In this document: one piece after another, positions 42,556-48,679 of the stretch
Layout: each line of letters opens with the position of its first letter
How positions within the stretch are numbered: the first letter of the stretch is position 1
DNA from: Meridianimarinicoccus sp. MJW13
GTDB lineage: Bacteria > Pseudomonadota > Alphaproteobacteria > Rhodobacterales > Rhodobacteraceae
Direction: 5' to 3'
NCBI RefSeq assembly: GCF_014901205.1
Contig: NZ_JACNMU010000006.1
Location: forward strand, 186,001 to 250,000
DNA: 64,000 bases
Position numbers and translations under genes: made by a program
The notes under the pieces: model-generated
What the model was told of the DNA's origin: nothing
The model's database searches: none
The model's input: the letters and a program-made list of their open reading frames with translations, nothing else

Positions 42556-43599
42556 ATGCACAGCCCCGCCGCCGACATCGCCCGCCGCCTTGCCGAGGAT
42601 GCCGAGGCCGTCTGCCGTCACTACCTCACGAACGGGCGCAAACAGGGCCGCTACTGGGTTGTTGGCGATGTGCAGAACACACCAGGCCGCAGCCTCTATG
42701 TCAGACTGACCGGTCCGATCTATGGTCCCGGTGCCGCCGGAAAATGGACCGATTCCGCAACCGGGCAGCATGGCGACCTTCTGGACCTGATCGCCCTGAA
42801 CATGGGTATCACCACCCTGAGGGACGCGCTGGACGAAGCGCGCAGGTTTCTCAGCCTGCCGCAGACGGACAGGCACCGGGCCACCAAACTGCCAGCTTCT
42901 CGCGGCTCACCCGAAGCCGCCCGGCGGCTCTGGGCCATGGGCCAACCGATTTCTGGCACCTTGGCAGAACGCTATCTCGCAAGGCGCGGCCTCACCGGGT
43001 TGGGCCATCTCGACAGTCTTCGGTTTCACCCGAACTGCTTCTACTGGCGCGAGGATCACGCGCTGACAGACCCGCCCGAGACCTGGCCCGCCCTGCTCGC
43101 CAAGGTGACGGACCTCGACGGACAGCTCACGGGCCTGCATCGCACGTGGCTCGATCCTGTCTCGGCAGACAAGGCCCCAGTCAGTCCACCGCGCAAGGCC
43201 ATGGGCAATCTCCTCGGCCATGGTGTCCGCATAGGCGAACCGAACGGCATGCTGGCCGCAGGCGAAGGGCTGGAGACCATGCTCTCCCTGCATCTTGCGC
43301 TGCCGAAGTTGCCTGCGGTAGCGGCTCTGTCCGCCAATCATCTCGCAGCCCTGCAGCTGCCCGCCGACCTTCGCCGCCTCTACATCGCCGTCGATGCCGA
43401 CCCGGCAGGCCTGTCCGCTGCGGACCAACTGGCGCATCGGGCCATTGGGGCCGGAATCGACGCCGTCCATCTCTCCCCCTGTCTCGGCGATTTCAATGAC
43501 GATCTGCGGGCAATTGGCCGCGACGCGTTCCGCGCGCATCTGCGTCCGCAACTGGCGCCCGAGGATGCCGTGACCTTCCTCGACCACGCCATCGATTGA
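42556..43599 (+). CDS. Toprim-domain protein (plasmid/ICE primase-like)
   Basis: The 347-residue product starts at ATG 42556 after AGGAGG. The N-terminal half resembles the zinc-ribbon/primase-like part of DUF7146-type Toprim proteins (GKWTDSATGQHGDLLDLIALN). The C-terminal half is a Toprim domain: AAGEGLETMLSLHLALP (catalytic Glu) and LYIAVDADPAGLSAADQL (DxD). Such proteins are thought to prime or nick DNA during replication of plasmids and ICEs. No helicase domain is fused. Confidence 0.87.
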   Translation: MHSPAADIARRLAEDAEAVCRHYLTNGRKQGRYWVVGDVQNTPGRSLYVRLTGPIYGPGAAGKWTDSATGQHGDLLDLIALNMGITTLRDALDEARRFLSLPQTDRHRATKLPASRGSPEAARRLWAMGQPISGTLAERYLARRGLTGLGHLDSLRFHPNCFYWREDHALTDPPETWPALLAKVTDLDGQLTGLHRTWLDPVSADKAPVSPPRKAMGNLLGHGVRIGEPNGMLAAGEGLETMLSLHLALPKLPAVAALSANHLAALQLPADLRRLYIAVDADPAGLSAADQLAHRAIGAGIDAVHLSPCLGDFNDDLRAIGRDAFRAHLRPQLAPEDAVTFLDHAID

Positions 43600-43782
43600 T
43601 CGGAGTCGGCGCAGTCGGCCAGCGCCTCCGCGATCAGAGCCACGCCTTCCGGCCTTCCGAGAGCGGGCATAACGGAGCAGCGCCCGAACGGGCCCGCAAC
43701 GGCAAGCCGTCCTTCGCTTTGCTTCGGCCGCCGCAAGCGCGGCGGTGCAGACCCGCCCGGCCCCCGCTTTTCCGTCGCCCGG

Positions 43783-43807
43783 GAAGGCCGCGAGAGGCGC
43801 GGTCTTC
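43783..43807 (+). promoter_or_regulatory. AGAGG-loop hairpin before the DUF2493 gene (leader copy 3)
   Basis: A ten-pair stem (43783-43792 with 43798-43807, one G-U) closes the same five-base loop AGAGG as the leaders at 37733 and 40244. A TCCG/CGGA pairing may form an outer helix with a bulge. GGAG follows, and the ATG is at 43827. The stem sequence differs completely from copies 1 and 2, only the loop is shared. Confidence 0.45.
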
Positions 43808-43826
43808 GACAACCGGAGACGACATC

Positions 43827-44753
43827 ATGCCCGAGACCCACCTTCAAACCCGATCCTCCACCGCCGTCGTACTCGAGGAACTGCAGCTATACGGCTGGCG
43901 CCCCTTCATCGACGAGCCCGATCCCCGCCCCTTGCCGGAACCCGACGCAATTCGCACCGCCGTCGCCGACATCTTCGACGCGCTCGTCTCGACCCTGTCC
44001 GACACGCGGCTGGAACCCGACCTCGAAGACCTGCTCTGGTCCACCACGAACCTGTTTCACCGCATGGCGACGCGGACAGGCCGGGATCTCGACAGCAACG
44101 AACAGGCGCAGAAACGGGCGCAACGCGAACAGGACGGATCCGAGGTCCGGTCCGTCGAGCTCGAGAACCTGATCGCTGAAGGCGTCACGCTGATCGAGCG
44201 ACGCAATGCCTTTGAGGCCATGCGTGATCTCGCCGCCGAGGGCTTCGAGGCGCATCTCGGCCAGACATGGCACCCGCGCACGGGCAGCCACGTGAACCGG
44301 CGTACTATGACCGCGTCCCTGATCGACAGCCGCGATCATCTCATTGCGAAGCGCCGGGCCGATCTGGAACCGCTCCTGCCCCAAGGCACGAAAATCGCCT
44401 TCACCGGCGGGCTCGACTGCAACGATCATGCGGCCATCTGGGCGGCCCTCGACCGCGTCCACGCGAAACACGCCGACATGGTCTTGTTGCACGGCGGCGC
44501 ACCGCGCGGGGCAGAACGGATCGCCGCCGCCTGGGCCGACAACCGCGCCGTGACGCAGATCGTCTTCAAACCCGACTGGACGCGGCACGGCAAATCGGCC
44601 CCCTTCAAGCGCAACGACCAGTTGCTCGACACCCTGCCCATCGGCCTCATCGTCTTCCCGGGCTCGGGCATCACCGAAAATCTCGCCGACAAGGCCCGCA
44701 CGATGGGCATTCCCCTCTTCGACTTCCGGCCGAAAGCTGCCCCACCGGCATGA
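43827..44753 (+). CDS. DUF2493 (SLOG/YspA-like) domain protein
   Basis: A 308-residue protein. The N-terminal 190 residues are helical and mostly charged. The C-terminal 120 residues are a DUF2493 domain of the SLOG superfamily (TKIAFTGGLDCNDHAAIWAAL, LLHGGAPRGAERIAAAWA, VFKPDWTRHGKSAPFKRN), a Rossmann-like fold that binds nucleotide-derived ligands. SLOG domains occur as sensors in several defence and DNA-uptake systems, but the role of this ICE version is unknown. A strong terminator follows. Confidence 0.87.
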   Translation: MPETHLQTRSSTAVVLEELQLYGWRPFIDEPDPRPLPEPDAIRTAVADIFDALVSTLSDTRLEPDLEDLLWSTTNLFHRMATRTGRDLDSNEQAQKRAQREQDGSEVRSVELENLIAEGVTLIERRNAFEAMRDLAAEGFEAHLGQTWHPRTGSHVNRRTMTASLIDSRDHLIAKRRADLEPLLPQGTKIAFTGGLDCNDHAAIWAALDRVHAKHADMVLLHGGAPRGAERIAAAWADNRAVTQIVFKPDWTRHGKSAPFKRNDQLLDTLPIGLIVFPGSGITENLADKARTMGIPLFDFRPKAAPPA

Positions 44754-44769
44754 CCGGATTTCCGCCGAC

Positions 44770-44804
44770 GCCCGCCCCGAACCCTCCCGGGGCGGGCCGT
44801 TTTC
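44770..44804 (+). terminator. Rho-independent terminator after the DUF2493 gene
   Basis: CCCGCCCCG (44771) pairs with CGGGGCGGG (44788), extended by one pair, and is followed by TTTT. Confidence 0.85.
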
Positions 44805-44871
44805 TGCTATGATCCGCCCGTGCCAATGGAGGAGGTGGCGGCGCGATCCTTGTTCTCGAAAGGAGTGCCTC

Positions 44872-45324
44872 ATGTTTTTCTCCACCCTCTTCGCGCTGTT
44901 CGGCCTCGGTGCCCTCTGCTGGGTTCTGTTCAACTTGGCCGTCTACGCCCTGCCTTTCGCGATCGGCCTGACGTCCGGCATGTATCTGTATGAAACGGGC
45001 CAAGGCGTCTTTCTGTCGATCATTGCGGGCCTCTTCATCGGCGGCTTTGTCGCGGCTCTGGGTGAATTCGCCTTTGACCGCATCCGTTGGGCCCCGCTCA
45101 AACTCGCGATCGGTCTGATCTATGCGATCCCCGCCGGGATCGCCGGGTTTCATGCGGCAAAGGGTCTTGCCGAATTCGGCAGCGCGGGCACCGTCACCAT
45201 CACCTTCTTGTCCTGGTTGGGCGCGCTGGTTGTGGGCGGGACCGCGTGGGCGCGGGTATCGGGCTGGTCCGAGGTCAACGCCATGTCCGACCCGCATCCG
45301 CACAGGTCTTTCGACGAACACTGA
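44872..45324 (+). CDS. Small integral membrane protein of unknown function
   Basis: ATG 44872 after AAGGAG gives 150 residues with four hydrophobic segments (ALFGLGALCWVLFNLAVYAL, FLSIIAGLFIGGFVAAL, LAIGLIYAIPAGIAGF, VTITFLSWLGALVVGG) and a short charged C-terminus. I do not recognise a named family. It is a frequent type of cargo gene beside DUF2493/DUF736 genes on alphaproteobacterial elements, but no function can be assigned. Confidence 0.75.
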   Translation: MFFSTLFALFGLGALCWVLFNLAVYALPFAIGLTSGMYLYETGQGVFLSIIAGLFIGGFVAALGEFAFDRIRWAPLKLAIGLIYAIPAGIAGFHAAKGLAEFGSAGTVTITFLSWLGALVVGGTAWARVSGWSEVNAMSDPHPHRSFDEH

Positions 45325-45968
45325 ACGCCCAGTGAAGTCTACGCAGCAGCATGCCGTCAGTGACGTCGTCAGCATGCCCAGCGACCGATTGAGGCAACAG
45401 GTCTCGATCCGCGCCGTCACCGCAGCGTTGCGGTTGGGCGGGATCGGCTGAGCAAAGCCAAATCGCCGAAACCCACGTTGTGGCGCATGGCCCCGGTCGC
45501 GCATGCACCTGGATCGCCGGCAGAAAGAACATCGCGGCAGTCAAACACAGACACGGCGAGAGGGGGCAATCCCGGAGTACCGAAGCACGTCCAGGACATG
45601 CACCGTTTCTGCCTGCACGCCATAGCCTGTCTTTGCACGACGCATGCTGCCGGGGTCTTGCGCGGTCCAGAGGTAGCCTGTCATCCCCTCTTCCATGGCA
45701 TGACGCCACGCGTCCCTTGCGGGCCTCTCAGCGGCTGATCTGACCGGGATCGGCTGACGCCTCGACCGCCTTGAACGCAACAGCGCGTCCGGACTTTCTT
45801 CCCCTGGCGGATACCCGCCATTCCTCGCGGAGCAAGAAAGACCGGCGTTGCCGTCCTCCGCTGGCGCTGCGGGCCACAGGGGCTGCGTCGGCGGATCGCC
45901 CCGGTCCTGACGATCGCCATCGAGGCCGCGAAGGGCGCGGGCTCGGACAAGCCAAAAGGAGATATGAC
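45325..45968. other. 644 bp without a convincing gene
   Basis: Short open frames exist on both strands (for example 45480-45743 plus, 45541-45780 minus), but none has a ribosome site with a protein-like composition or a family I recognise. The right end holds the leader hairpin before DUF736 at 45922. The stretch may be decayed DNA left by rearrangement within the element. Confidence 0.5.
45922..45944 (+). promoter_or_regulatory. Hairpin before the DUF736 gene (leader copy 4)
   Basis: GAGGCCGCG (45922) pairs with CGCGGGCTC (45936) apart from one G-G mismatch, around the loop AAGGG. It is close in sequence to copy 3 at 43783 (GAAGGCCGCG stem, AGAGG loop). AAAGGAGA follows, with the ATG at 45969. 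Confidence 0.4.
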
Positions 45969-46307
45969 ATGGCCACCATCGGAACCTTCAAGAAGACCGG
46001 CAGCGAATACGTCGGCGAAATCGTCACCCTGAGCGTTCAGGCGAAAGCCGTCCGCATCGTCCCCGAGGACAGCACCCCGAACGACAACGCCCCCTCCCAC
46101 CGCGTCTTCGTCGGCCGTGCCGAGATCGGCGCCGCCTGGTCCAAACGCTCGACCGAGGGCCGCGACTACCTGAGTCTCAAGCTCGACGACCCGAGCTTCA
46201 CCCAGCCGATCTACGCCAACCTCTTCGACGATACGGTGATCGAAGGCGGCGAAGAGACCTTCAGCCTCATCTGGTCGCGCCCCAACACCCGCCGCAACGG
46301 CGACTGA
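45969..46307 (+). CDS. DUF736 family protein
   Basis: A 112-residue protein matching DUF736 (MATIGTFKKTG, EIVTLSVQAKAVRIVP, HRVFVGRAEIGAAWSK, DYLSLKLDDPSFTQPIYANL). The family is confined to plasmids and ICEs of alpha- and other proteobacteria and has no known function. The ATG at 45969 follows AAAGGAGA. A hairpin terminator follows the stop. Confidence 0.93.
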   Translation: MATIGTFKKTGSEYVGEIVTLSVQAKAVRIVPEDSTPNDNAPSHRVFVGRAEIGAAWSKRSTEGRDYLSLKLDDPSFTQPIYANLFDDTVIEGGEETFSLIWSRPNTRRNGD

Positions 46308-46317
46308 CAACAGACCG

Positions 46318-46342
46318 CCCCGCCCAGGATCACTGGGCGGGG
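46318..46342 (+). terminator. Hairpin terminator after DUF736
   Basis: A ten-base perfect stem CCCCGCCCAG/CTGGGCGGGG, followed after six bases by a T-rich stretch. The 210 bp from here to the next gene are AT-richer and hold no gene. Confidence 0.7.
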
Positions 46343-46552
46343 TCCACTTTCCTTTTCGTTGGTTTGGCAACAAGCGGTTCGGAGCCATGCTTGAAGCCAA
46401 CACGTTCAGCCCTGATATGTACTTGGCGCTTCTAGGACTTTTGCTGCGCAGAATAGCGCAAAGAAGGCATTGGTTTCTGAAAGCGCCGTTCGTTCACGGG
46501 TGACAAGCCCTGCACGAACTGCGATGCTCAAAAGGCTGTTTGAGGAACGTAC

Positions 46553-48679
46553 ATGCCGACAATGACCGAGAACCTACCCAACAGGGTTAGGAAGCTGACT
46601 AAGCCAAGAAATTATGCGCAAGCGATGCAGCCATTCTTGGAAGCTGTCAGCAATTCAATCATGGCAATTGATGACCGAGTGGCAGTATTCGGAGGTCGTT
46701 CGGATGGAGTAGTCAATATTGTCGTCTCAGATCTCGGGGCAGACGACATCAGCATTGAGATATCGGACAATGGCATTGGCCTTGACAAAGAGCGGTATGA
46801 TGCGTTCTGCGAGATTGACACCGACTTCAAAAGGGAGCGCGGCGGCAAAGGAGTCGGCCGTCTTTACTGGCTAGACGCATTCAAGAAGATAGAGGTAGTC
46901 TCTAATTATAAAACAGACACTGGCATGTCACAGCGAGCTTTTGAGTTTCGCTTGGCGCAAGAAAATCAAGTATTTGAAAATACTGACTTGGATCATGATC
47001 TAGCGCAAGGCGTTACTGGAACGACAGTTCGCTTTCGAGGATTACGACAGGGGCCTTACTTGGAGCTGTTTCCGAAACGGGCCGCAACGATCAAAGACTA
47101 TTTGGCAGCAGAGTTTATTTCAAATTTCTTGAGCAAGGTCGGTCCAGTAGTCCACTTAACCGCCACGACCAAAGGCGGAACCGTACAAACAGCAACTTAC
47201 CCAAAAGATGTTTCGGAATTGGTTGCGCGAGGGCCTGAAAAAATCAGCGATATTATTCTAGATGACGCTTCAAAACTCGAAGTTCGCTGTTTTCTTTGTG
47301 ACAAAAAGGCGAGTTCTGGGCTTACCGGCCGCCATCAAGTTCATTTGCTCGGAAATAACCGCACTGTTGAGAGTCGAAATGTAGACGATCTTGTTGCGAT
47401 TGGCCCTCTAAGAACCGAAGAGCTCGATGACTTGGCACTTCATATTCTGGTGAGCGGTGAACTCCTTGACAACAGTGTTGCCGAAAGCCGCACATCCTTT
47501 ACTCTTCCGGAAGTCGAGGTTTCCGAGATCGTTAAAAGCGCGGTCAAAACTGCTCGATCAGAATTCATTGCAGACCAGCTGAACGAGTTTGATCGAGCCC
47601 GTCGGGAGCAATTTGATAAATTCTTGGAACATCAACCAATTTTTGGTTTTGCCAATAGGGATGAGATTTTTGCTTCGCTACCTGCAAATGCAAAAAGCCC
47701 AGAAGATTTCGTAAGCAAATTGGCGCTTCCTAGGTTTCGCGCTGAGCAAAAGAGAGAAGAAGCCCTTTCATCTTTGGTGGACAAGGTCGTATCGGGCGAT
47801 GAAGTTCCCGAAAATTTTGGCGAGGTTGTACGCCGTGCTGCCGAAGGGGTGCAAGACAATGAAAGGGCAGCGTTGGGCCACCACGCCGCAAGAAGAAGAG
47901 TTGTCTTGGACCTGATGGATCGTTTGATCCGACGTCTTCGAAATAGCCCAGACAAAGACAAGAACCACGTAGAAAACACCTTACATACTTTGCTTGTACC
48001 GATGAGGGTCAATTCATCTAATCCAGACGAAGAGGAGCGTGCGGCTCACGACCTTTGGCTATTGGACGAGCGCTTGGCTTTTGCGTCCGGTTTCTCTTCT
48101 GACAAACGTTTAGCAGCCGTTCTTGAAGACAGTGATAGTGAGCTAAGGCCCGATGTGCTCTTGTGGGACGTGCTCTATGCATTGGGTCCAGTGGGTCACC
48201 AAGGAGGTGCCGAAGATGTCGAGGACACAGAACCTCTTTCTACGGTGTTCATTGTTGAGCTGAAACACCCTGGTCGCGAAAACTACAAGGCGGAGGAACG
48301 AATCGAGGATCAGGTTCGAAGATATGTCACTGAGATAAAGGGTGGCAAAATCGAGAGTTTTGGGCGTAGAAAAATCCGCGTTTCAGACGACTGCCAGTTC
48401 CATTGTCTCGTTGTCGCCGATTTTCATGGGCGGCTAGCAGATGAAGTGTCAGGTTGGGACTATGTCCATAATCGCCGAGGTCGTGAGCGGCGTCTTGGCG
48501 GGGATCATTCGAGCGTAATCATTCAGGCCGTTGAATGGGATTATGTCCTCTCAACATCACGCCAAGCGAACAGAGCCCTACTTGACGCGGCTGGTCTTGA
48601 TCGTGCGCGAACGACAGATTTCACCAAACAACGTTCAATACAGGATGACAGTCAGGAGGGTACAAAGGCAGCTGAATAG
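46553..48679 (+). CDS. Stand-alone GHKL (Bergerat-fold) ATPase with PD-(D/E)XK-like C-terminus; candidate defence protein
   Basis: A 708-residue protein. The N-terminal 190 residues carry all GHKL motifs: N box Glu30...Asn34 (FLEAVSNS), G1 Asp72-Asn-Gly-Ile-Gly, and G2 GGKGVGRLYW at 97-106, as in Hsp90, MutL and MORC ATPases. A middle region of about 300 residues has helices (VKTARSEFIADQLNEFDRARREQFDKF, read in part). The C-terminal part has Pro533-Asp534 and Glu569-Leu-Lys571 (VELKHPG), a PD-(D/E)XK nuclease-like pattern. No kinase, receiver or membrane part is present. Its lower GC content and different codon use suggest separate acquisition. Anti-phage or DNA-repair function is inferred, not shown. 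Confidence 0.75.
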   Translation: MPTMTENLPNRVRKLTKPRNYAQAMQPFLEAVSNSIMAIDDRVAVFGGRSDGVVNIVVSDLGADDISIEISDNGIGLDKERYDAFCEIDTDFKRERGGKGVGRLYWLDAFKKIEVVSNYKTDTGMSQRAFEFRLAQENQVFENTDLDHDLAQGVTGTTVRFRGLRQGPYLELFPKRAATIKDYLAAEFISNFLSKVGPVVHLTATTKGGTVQTATYPKDVSELVARGPEKISDIILDDASKLEVRCFLCDKKASSGLTGRHQVHLLGNNRTVESRNVDDLVAIGPLRTEELDDLALHILVSGELLDNSVAESRTSFTLPEVEVSEIVKSAVKTARSEFIADQLNEFDRARREQFDKFLEHQPIFGFANRDEIFASLPANAKSPEDFVSKLALPRFRAEQKREEALSSLVDKVVSGDEVPENFGEVVRRAAEGVQDNERAALGHHAARRRVVLDLMDRLIRRLRNSPDKDKNHVENTLHTLLVPMRVNSSNPDEEERAAHDLWLLDERLAFASGFSSDKRLAAVLEDSDSELRPDVLLWDVLYALGPVGHQGGAEDVEDTEPLSTVFIVELKHPGRENYKAEERIEDQVRRYVTEIKGGKIESFGRRKIRVSDDCQFHCLVVADFHGRLADEVSGWDYVHNRRGRERRLGGDHSSVIIQAVEWDYVLSTSRQANRALLDAAGLDRARTTDFTKQRSIQDDSQEGTKAAE

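What the first reader, a model, noticed from the sequence alone, without database searches (positions are those of the whole stretch)
46553..48679. Single-gene GHKL ATPase with PD-(D/E)XK-like C-terminus: candidate new anti-phage factor
All Bergerat ATPase motifs are intact, but the protein lacks histidine kinase, gyrase, MutL and Hsp90 domain layouts. It ends in a region with PD...ExK, so an ATP-gated nuclease is plausible. It is AT-richer than neighbours, stands alone between a terminator and a toxin-antitoxin module, and lies on an ICE that also carries restriction genes. I cannot match it to a defence system I know.
Basis: partly seen in the sequence, partly recalled or inferred. Interest (0 to 1): 0.76.

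Follow-up and report, generated by a model that had tools for sequence, protein, structure and literature searches.

The report
Standalone paraMORC3 (VcSduA-like) nuclease ATPase
This gene encodes a probable ATP-driven DNA-cutting protein of an already described family, one member of which protects cholera bacteria from phages, so it looks like a real defence gene but not a new kind of system.

Summary
In detail: a 708-aa GHKL ATPase with a C-terminal PD-(D/E)XK nuclease, AT-rich, alone between a terminator-like hairpin and a ParE-type toxin-antitoxin pair, near conjugation and type I restriction genes. The claim that it matches no known system does not hold. It has the architecture of paraMORC3 (PMC2292703, 2008: GHKL + S5 + restriction-endonuclease fold with E-D-ExK, often standalone). 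A published protein of this layout, VcSduA of Vibrio cholerae, blocks phages and needs its ATPase Glu (E27) and nuclease Lys (K557) (PMC12137116, 2025); the equivalents here, E30 and K571, are invariant in my alignments. AlphaFold models show a MORC/Hsp90-like ATPase-transducer module (residues 2-348, Z 19-20) and a C-terminal domain whose best VIA-align match is the Shedu nuclease (Z 9.2; nicking enzyme 8.2). Profile comparison with Shedu far exceeds shuffled controls. On plasmids, 11 of 20 relatives have restriction, Abi, SIR2, TIR, HEPN or Shedu genes nearby, against 1 of 16 control windows. Best reading: an ATP-gated anti-phage DNA nuclease of the paraMORC3 / VcSduA type. PADLOC and Pfam's Shedu model do not recognise it, which explains why it looked new. 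Trigger and substrate are unknown.

The parts
46553..48679 (+). paraMORC3 / VcSduA-like gene, 708 aa: GHKL ATPase + transducer + helical middle part + C-terminal PD-(D/E)XK nuclease
46553..47596 (+). GHKL ATPase and S5/transducer module, aa 1-348; N box E30/N34, D72-x-G74-x-G76, G97-x-x-G100-x-G102-R103
   Evidence: conserved columns; structural match of aa 2-348 to Hsp90 and MORC2/MORC3
47597..47869 (+). mostly helical middle region, aa 349-439; role unassigned
   Evidence: secondary structure
47870..48601 (+). PD-(D/E)XK nuclease domain, aa 440-683; E474, D534, E569-x-K571, Q587
46318..46342 (+). terminator-like hairpin (10-bp stem, loop GATCA) after the upstream DUF736 gene
   Evidence: sequence; not listed by the scan

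Best explanation
It is a standalone paraMORC3-type protein of the VcSduA kind. Most likely the GHKL + transducer module dimerises on binding ATP and closes as a clamp round DNA (or a DNA-protein target); a phage-specific feature triggers or prolongs this, and the C-terminal PD-(D/E)XK domains then cut the invading DNA. It would act as direct restriction that spares the host rather than as suicide. Shown here: the domains, the invariant active sites, the predicted folds, the mobile and defence-rich context. Taken from a published protein of the same layout (VcSduA): anti-phage activity that needs both active sites, and robust protection at all phage doses tested. Inferred: dimerisation, ATP gating, DNA clamping and the trigger.
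For: Architecture equals the paraMORC3 definition. VcSduA E27A and K557A both lose activity; the equivalents E30 and K571 are invariant in alignments of 27 and 36. AlphaFold: pLDDT 83, pTM 0.61 for the whole protein, 84 and 0.84 for the nuclease domain alone. VIA-align: Hsp90 7l7i Z 19.9 (294 residues, rmsd 4.5), MORC2 9cdh Z 19.6 (295, 4.1), MORC3 5ix2 Z 19.3 (288, 4.2) over aa 2-348; E. coli SduA 8ps4 Z 9.2 (163, 4.1) and B. cereus Shedu 8ti9 Z 8.5 (159, 3.9) for the C-terminal domain. hhalign of the nuclease domain against a Shedu alignment: 93.2%, score 56.5, with D534, ExK and Q587 on Shedu's D, ExK and Q; 40 column shuffles reach at most 24.3, the reversed profile 14.3. Defence genes near 11 of 20 relatives against 1 of 16 control windows, Fisher p 0.0035. 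Close relatives L003, L004, L005 and L010 share no neighbour gene with the window at E 1e-8 within the flanks held (right flank 1.7 kb for L003, about 1.5 kb each side for L010), as expected of a self-contained unit.
Against: The window protein is 24% identical to the Vibrio fluvialis member and lies in a separate clade. Pfam SduA_C does not match it, and matched 1 of 27 relatives at E 0.15. PADLOC gives nothing for it, and for 27 relatives only six weak hits of one member each, none to SduA, best TmtA 0.0028. Foldseek alone found no significant match for the C-terminal domain (best E 0.016, McrBC). The Shedu Z values (9.2, 8.5) are within about 1 of Nt.BspD6I (8.2). 9 of 20 relatives had no recognised defence gene near them. 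No match in the named phage collection at E 1e-5.
Confidence: 0.82

Rival explanations
1. It guards the mobile element rather than the cell: the GHKL nuclease acts mainly against incoming plasmids or rival ICEs, or in element maintenance, and phage protection is incidental.
For: Relatives occur on 55 plasmid records, 29 of 54 typed conjugative at E 1e-5, and the window copy lies among conjugation-element genes; DUF2493-type genes also lie near distant relatives on three Rhodobacterales plasmids (L009, L048, L050).
Against: Defence genes lie near 11 of 20 relatives, and VcSduA is active against phages in E. coli and V. cholerae.
Confidence: 0.1
2. It is a subunit working with the type I restriction genes about 11 kb downstream, as its place in the Vibrio and Salinivibrio operons would suggest.
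For: In L006 the gene overlaps a Shedu gene by 4 bp at the end of an HsdR-AAA-HsdM-HsdS-Shedu series, and L047 has the same series without Shedu; Iyer et al. link paraMORCs to restriction operons; HsdR and an N6_Mtase lie on the same contig.
Against: Here a toxin-antitoxin pair and conjugation genes intervene, and L003-L005 show no HsdR match at E 1e-8 within the flanks held. Iyer et al. describe standalone paraMORC3 genes.
Confidence: 0.07
3. It is a repair or housekeeping GHKL protein (MutL- or topoisomerase VI-like) carried as cargo.
For: GHKL + transducer is shared with MutL and Topo VI; Iyer et al. considered functions independent of restriction for standalone paraMORC3.
Against: Patchy distribution (10 of 398 sampled genomes of the phylum at E 1e-20, own genome included), mobile setting, low GC, a nuclease domain whose best VIA-align match is Shedu.
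Confidence: 0.03

Closest known systems
paraMORC3 family (Iyer, Abhiman and Aravind 2008, PMC2292703; passages and section 5 read)
   Same: GHKL + S5 + C-terminal restriction-endonuclease-fold domain with E-D-ExK; sporadic, prevalent in proteobacteria; a standalone subset is described
   Different: No difference found; no 2008 sequence was aligned directly
VcSduA, GHKL Shedu (type I-D) of Vibrio cholerae (PMC12137116; passages and section 12 read)
   Same: Single gene, N-terminal GHKL, C-terminal PD-(D/E)XK, equivalent Glu and Lys
   Different: Sequence not compared directly; the nearest Vibrio relative at hand (L006) is 24% identical and in another clade; target phages and trigger unknown here
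Shedu SduA nuclease (PDB 8ps4, 8ps5, 8ti8, 8ti9; PF14082)
   Same: Nuclease fold and register of D, ExK and Q
   Different: Not recognised by the Pfam model; regulatory part is a GHKL ATPase
Eukaryotic MORC2/MORC3 and Hsp90
   Same: GHKL + transducer module
   Different: No PD-(D/E)XK nuclease domain in these (recalled)
Tiamat (TmtA)
   Same: TmtA models match GHKL regions of some other GHKL proteins of the window's family (L027, L028, L030)
   Different: The seven TmtA models listed are 1063-1782 positions long; none matches the window protein

Membership tests
paraMORC3 | N-terminal GHKL domain with intact ATP motifs | tested here: met
   E30, N34, D72, G74, G76, G100, G102, R103 invariant
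paraMORC3 | S5/transducer domain after GHKL | tested here: met
   aa 2-348 of the model align with GHKL + transducer of MORC2, MORC3, SMCHD1 and Hsp90
paraMORC3 | additional C-terminal RE-fold domain with E-D-ExK | tested here: met
   E474, D534, E569-x-K571 invariant; most of the 50 structural rows are PD-(D/E)XK-type nucleases, a label I give from recall of those families
paraMORC3 | sequence homology to a paraMORC3 named in 2008 | not tested
   no such sequence was fetched by name
Shedu, type I-D / VcSduA | match to the curated SduA_C (DUF4263) profile | tested here: not met
   no match for the window protein; 1 of 27 relatives at E 0.15, 1 of 35 nuclease domains at 0.12
Shedu, type I-D / VcSduA | nuclease domain homologous to SduA by profile or fold comparison | tested here: met
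   hhalign 93.2% against a Shedu alignment, with shuffled controls; top structural rows 8ps4, 8ps5, 8ti9, but Nt.BspD6I is within about 1 Z
Shedu, type I-D / VcSduA | ATPase Glu and nuclease Lys equivalent to E27 and K557 | tested here: inconclusive
   E30 and K571 are invariant, but equivalence to VcSduA is by layout and numbering, not by direct alignment
Shedu, type I-D / VcSduA | anti-phage activity | not testable with these tools
   needs plaque assays
Tiamat (TmtA) | match to a TmtA model | tested here: not met
   PADLOC: no family for the window protein at E up to 10; one of 27 relatives at 0.0028

The most novel reading that the evidence does not exclude
The clade of the window protein (15 of 59 aligned sequences, SH-aLRT 100; named rows are rhizobial or Rhodobacterales) could be a distinct paraMORC3 subtype with a trigger different from VcSduA's: a topoisomerase-VI-like DNA clamp that reads topology or crossings of replicating phage DNA or of transferring plasmid DNA and cuts only when closed.
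Probability: 0.15. Interest if true: 0.55.

Novelty: new member of a known kind. Interest (0 to 1): 0.3.

Why it matters
It points to the GHKL-Shedu architecture, shown to be anti-phage in Vibrio, on mobile elements of marine and rhizobial bacteria. PADLOC 2.0.0 gave no SduA hit in 27 sampled members and Pfam SduA_C one weak hit, so surveys that rely on them probably under-count the group (inference). It also offers a laboratory-friendly member for asking how a MORC-like module gates a nuclease, a question shared with eukaryotic MORC proteins.

Tried and rejected
Tiamat was considered because TmtA models hit GHKL regions of other proteins of the window's family; rejected for the window protein. 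Histidine kinase, gyrase, HtpG/Hsp90, MutL and Topo VI rejected as identity: sequence matches cover only the GHKL part, structural ones GHKL + transducer. Co-function with the neighbouring ParE pair rejected: it is absent from the flanks held of L003-L005. Sequence searches for the nuclease domain against the PDB gave nothing relevant, and Foldseek alone gave no significant match; the Shedu match came from VIA-align and hhalign. A Shedu query in viral contigs found no relative.

Rows dropped. One search gave a best ORF for 50 loci; 14 were set aside before as copies, fragments or weak GHKL hits. Of the 36 I aligned 26 with the window protein (A1): L012, L017, L047, L053 and L054 were left out as close to rows kept, L051 without a recorded reason, and L026, L027, L028 and L030 as short or different GHKL proteins. 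Of 39 viral-contig loci I used 32 in A2: L062, L087 and L092 were partial, L072, L074 and L089 close to rows kept, L084 was left out for its GTG start; A3 also leaves out L071. L094-L098 re-find contigs already held and were not used. The Shedu alignment A4 used L006 and 8 of 11 genome loci; L129, L131 and L132 were left out. The neighbourhood count used 20 fetched loci out of 57 places in 55 plasmid records, chosen for diversity; products were classed by me from annotated names after seeing them (restriction-modification, Shedu, Abi including AbiEii, SIR2, TIR, HEPN counted; other toxin-antitoxin, AAA, UvrD and patatin genes not counted); the L006 flank was 8 kb, the others 6 kb, and L044 was cut at its record end. 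Controls were 8 stretches of 28 kb from 8 of those records, each split into two 14-kb windows; the one positive is an AbiEii gene. On the same 8 records the result is 6 of 8 against 1 of 16, p 0.0013.

Literature. PMC12137116: passages and section 12. PMC2292703: passages and section 5. PMC8011034 and PMC12926258: passages. Other papers only as search listings. Gu et al. 2025 and Loeff et al. 2025 are not held and are known to me only as cited in PMC12137116.

Full report
What is there. Window 46553-48679 (+) encodes one 708-residue protein. Its genome assembly (20 contigs) holds no second match at E 0.001, and an identical protein lies in Sulfitobacter delicatus DSM 16477 (L002). GC is 0.49 against 0.63 for the window. 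Upstream lie a DUF736 gene and a 10-bp terminator-like hairpin at 46318-46342 (my reading; not listed). Downstream lie a 93-aa ORF without a Pfam match and a ParE toxin. Further off are a YAcAr/DUF2493-type gene, a lytic transglycosylase, a relaxase, TraG and a type I restriction HsdR, followed by an N6_Mtase gene.

What it is. Pfam sees only a borderline GHKL domain, and PADLOC nothing. Relatives are nevertheless common: 55 of 72,556 plasmid records at E 0.001; 28 of 394 genomes of the window's own family at E 0.001, of which 10, own genome included, have a match spanning at least 85% of the query, the rest being partial or other GHKL proteins; 10 of 398 genomes of the phylum at E 1e-20, own genome included; and 39 loci in viral contigs, whose viral nature I did not check. 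None matched in the named phage collection. In alignments of 27 and 36 sequences (59 distinct) the GHKL residues E30, N34, D72, G74, G76, G100, G102, R103 and the C-terminal E474, H478, W502, D534, E569, K571 are invariant in both; Q587 is invariant in the second and at least 90% in the first.

Structure. An AlphaFold2 model of the whole protein (pLDDT 83, pTM 0.61) matches GHKL + transducer modules over residues 2-348: Hsp90 7l7i Z 19.9, MORC2 9cdh 19.6, MORC3 5ix2 19.3. The C-terminal domain folded alone (pLDDT 84, pTM 0.84) has as best VIA-align matches E. coli SduA (8ps4 and 8ps5, Z 9.2) and Bacillus cereus Shedu (8ti9, 8.5), then Nt.BspD6I (8.2), FokI (6.7), EndoMS (6.5) and McrBC (6.1); most of the 50 rows are PD-(D/E)XK-type nucleases by my recall of those families. 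Foldseek alone was not significant (best E 0.016, McrBC). A profile of the domain aligns with a Shedu profile at 93.2% probability and score 56.5, with D, ExK and Q in register; 40 column shuffles reached at most 24.3 and the reversed profile 14.3.

What is known. Iyer, Abhiman and Aravind (2008) defined paraMORC3 as GHKL + S5 + a C-terminal restriction-endonuclease-fold domain with E-D-ExK, with a standalone subset mainly in proteobacteria and bacteroidetes. PMC12137116 (2025) showed that VcSduA of Vibrio cholerae, a protein of that layout, protects E. coli against T1-like coliphages and V. cholerae against vibriophage X29, that E27A and K557A abolish the anti-phage activity, and that protection is robust at all phage doses tested; it files VcSduA as type I-D Shedu and notes the older name paraMORC3. 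Three of 36 rows carry Glu27 and Lys557 (L069, L076, L077) and L006 of Vibrio fluvialis carries Glu27 and Lys556; since L077 lies in another clade, numbering alone is weak. The window protein lies in a separate clade whose named rows are rhizobial or Rhodobacterales (quick tree, SH-aLRT only).

Context. Using annotated products, 11 of 20 plasmid relatives have a restriction-modification, Shedu, Abi, SIR2, TIR or HEPN gene within 6 kb (8 kb for L006), against 1 of 16 control windows from 8 of the same plasmids; Fisher p 0.0035, and 0.0013 on the matched records, 6 of 8. The classification was mine, by name and after the fact, and the 20 loci were chosen for diversity. L003, L004, L005 and L010 share none of 15 other window genes at E 1e-8 within the flanks held, so the gene seems to travel alone.

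Mechanism. The best reading is an ATP-gated clamp whose closure allows the nuclease domains to cut invading DNA. Active sites, predicted folds and context are shown here; phage activity is taken from VcSduA; dimerisation, gating, clamping and trigger are inferred. By name I file it as paraMORC3, VcSduA-like. Calling it Shedu follows the published proposal and the profile and fold results, but the curated SduA_C model does not recognise it, so I leave Shedu membership open.

Verdict. Real, probably a defence gene, already known in kind. It looked new because PADLOC and the Pfam Shedu model do not recognise it.

Noticed in passing
window 46000-48500 against L002 9400-12100: In 500-bp bins this stretch is 99-100% identical in DNA to Sulfitobacter delicatus, while bins from 40.5 to 58 kb on either side are mostly 86-98% (one at 81%), as if this cargo block had been exchanged recently.
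   Followed up: partly
L006 1-10016; L047 1-8016: In Vibrio fluvialis and Salinivibrio the paraMORC3 gene closes an HsdR-AAA ATPase-HsdM-HsdS series; in V. fluvialis a gene annotated as Shedu, overlapping it by 4 bp, sits before it, so two Shedu-type nucleases lie side by side.
   Followed up: partly
L132 184-1941: A GHKL protein of a different branch (its GHKL part matches PADLOC type II REase and MzaB models) with a C-terminal SduA-like domain (PADLOC SduA 2.5e-4; Pfam SduA_C 27.5 bits, cut-off 27), suggesting that GHKL and Shedu nuclease may have been fused more than once.
   Followed up: partly
L048 1907-7992: In Celeribacter a 1361-aa gene annotated 'restriction endonuclease' overlaps the paraMORC3 gene by 4 bp, a possible two-gene system.
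   Followed up: no
L115; L116 and L121; plasmid NZ_CP050098.1 401445-404788: Apparently broken copies: a stop codon in one genomic relative, another split into two matches with a stop, and an IS256 transposase annotated inside a Rhizobium leguminosarum copy.
   Followed up: no
L009, L048, L050 and window 43596-46307: Distant paraMORC3 relatives on three Rhodobacterales plasmids lie near DUF2493-type genes, as the window copy does, which hints at a shared cargo hotspot.
   Followed up: partly
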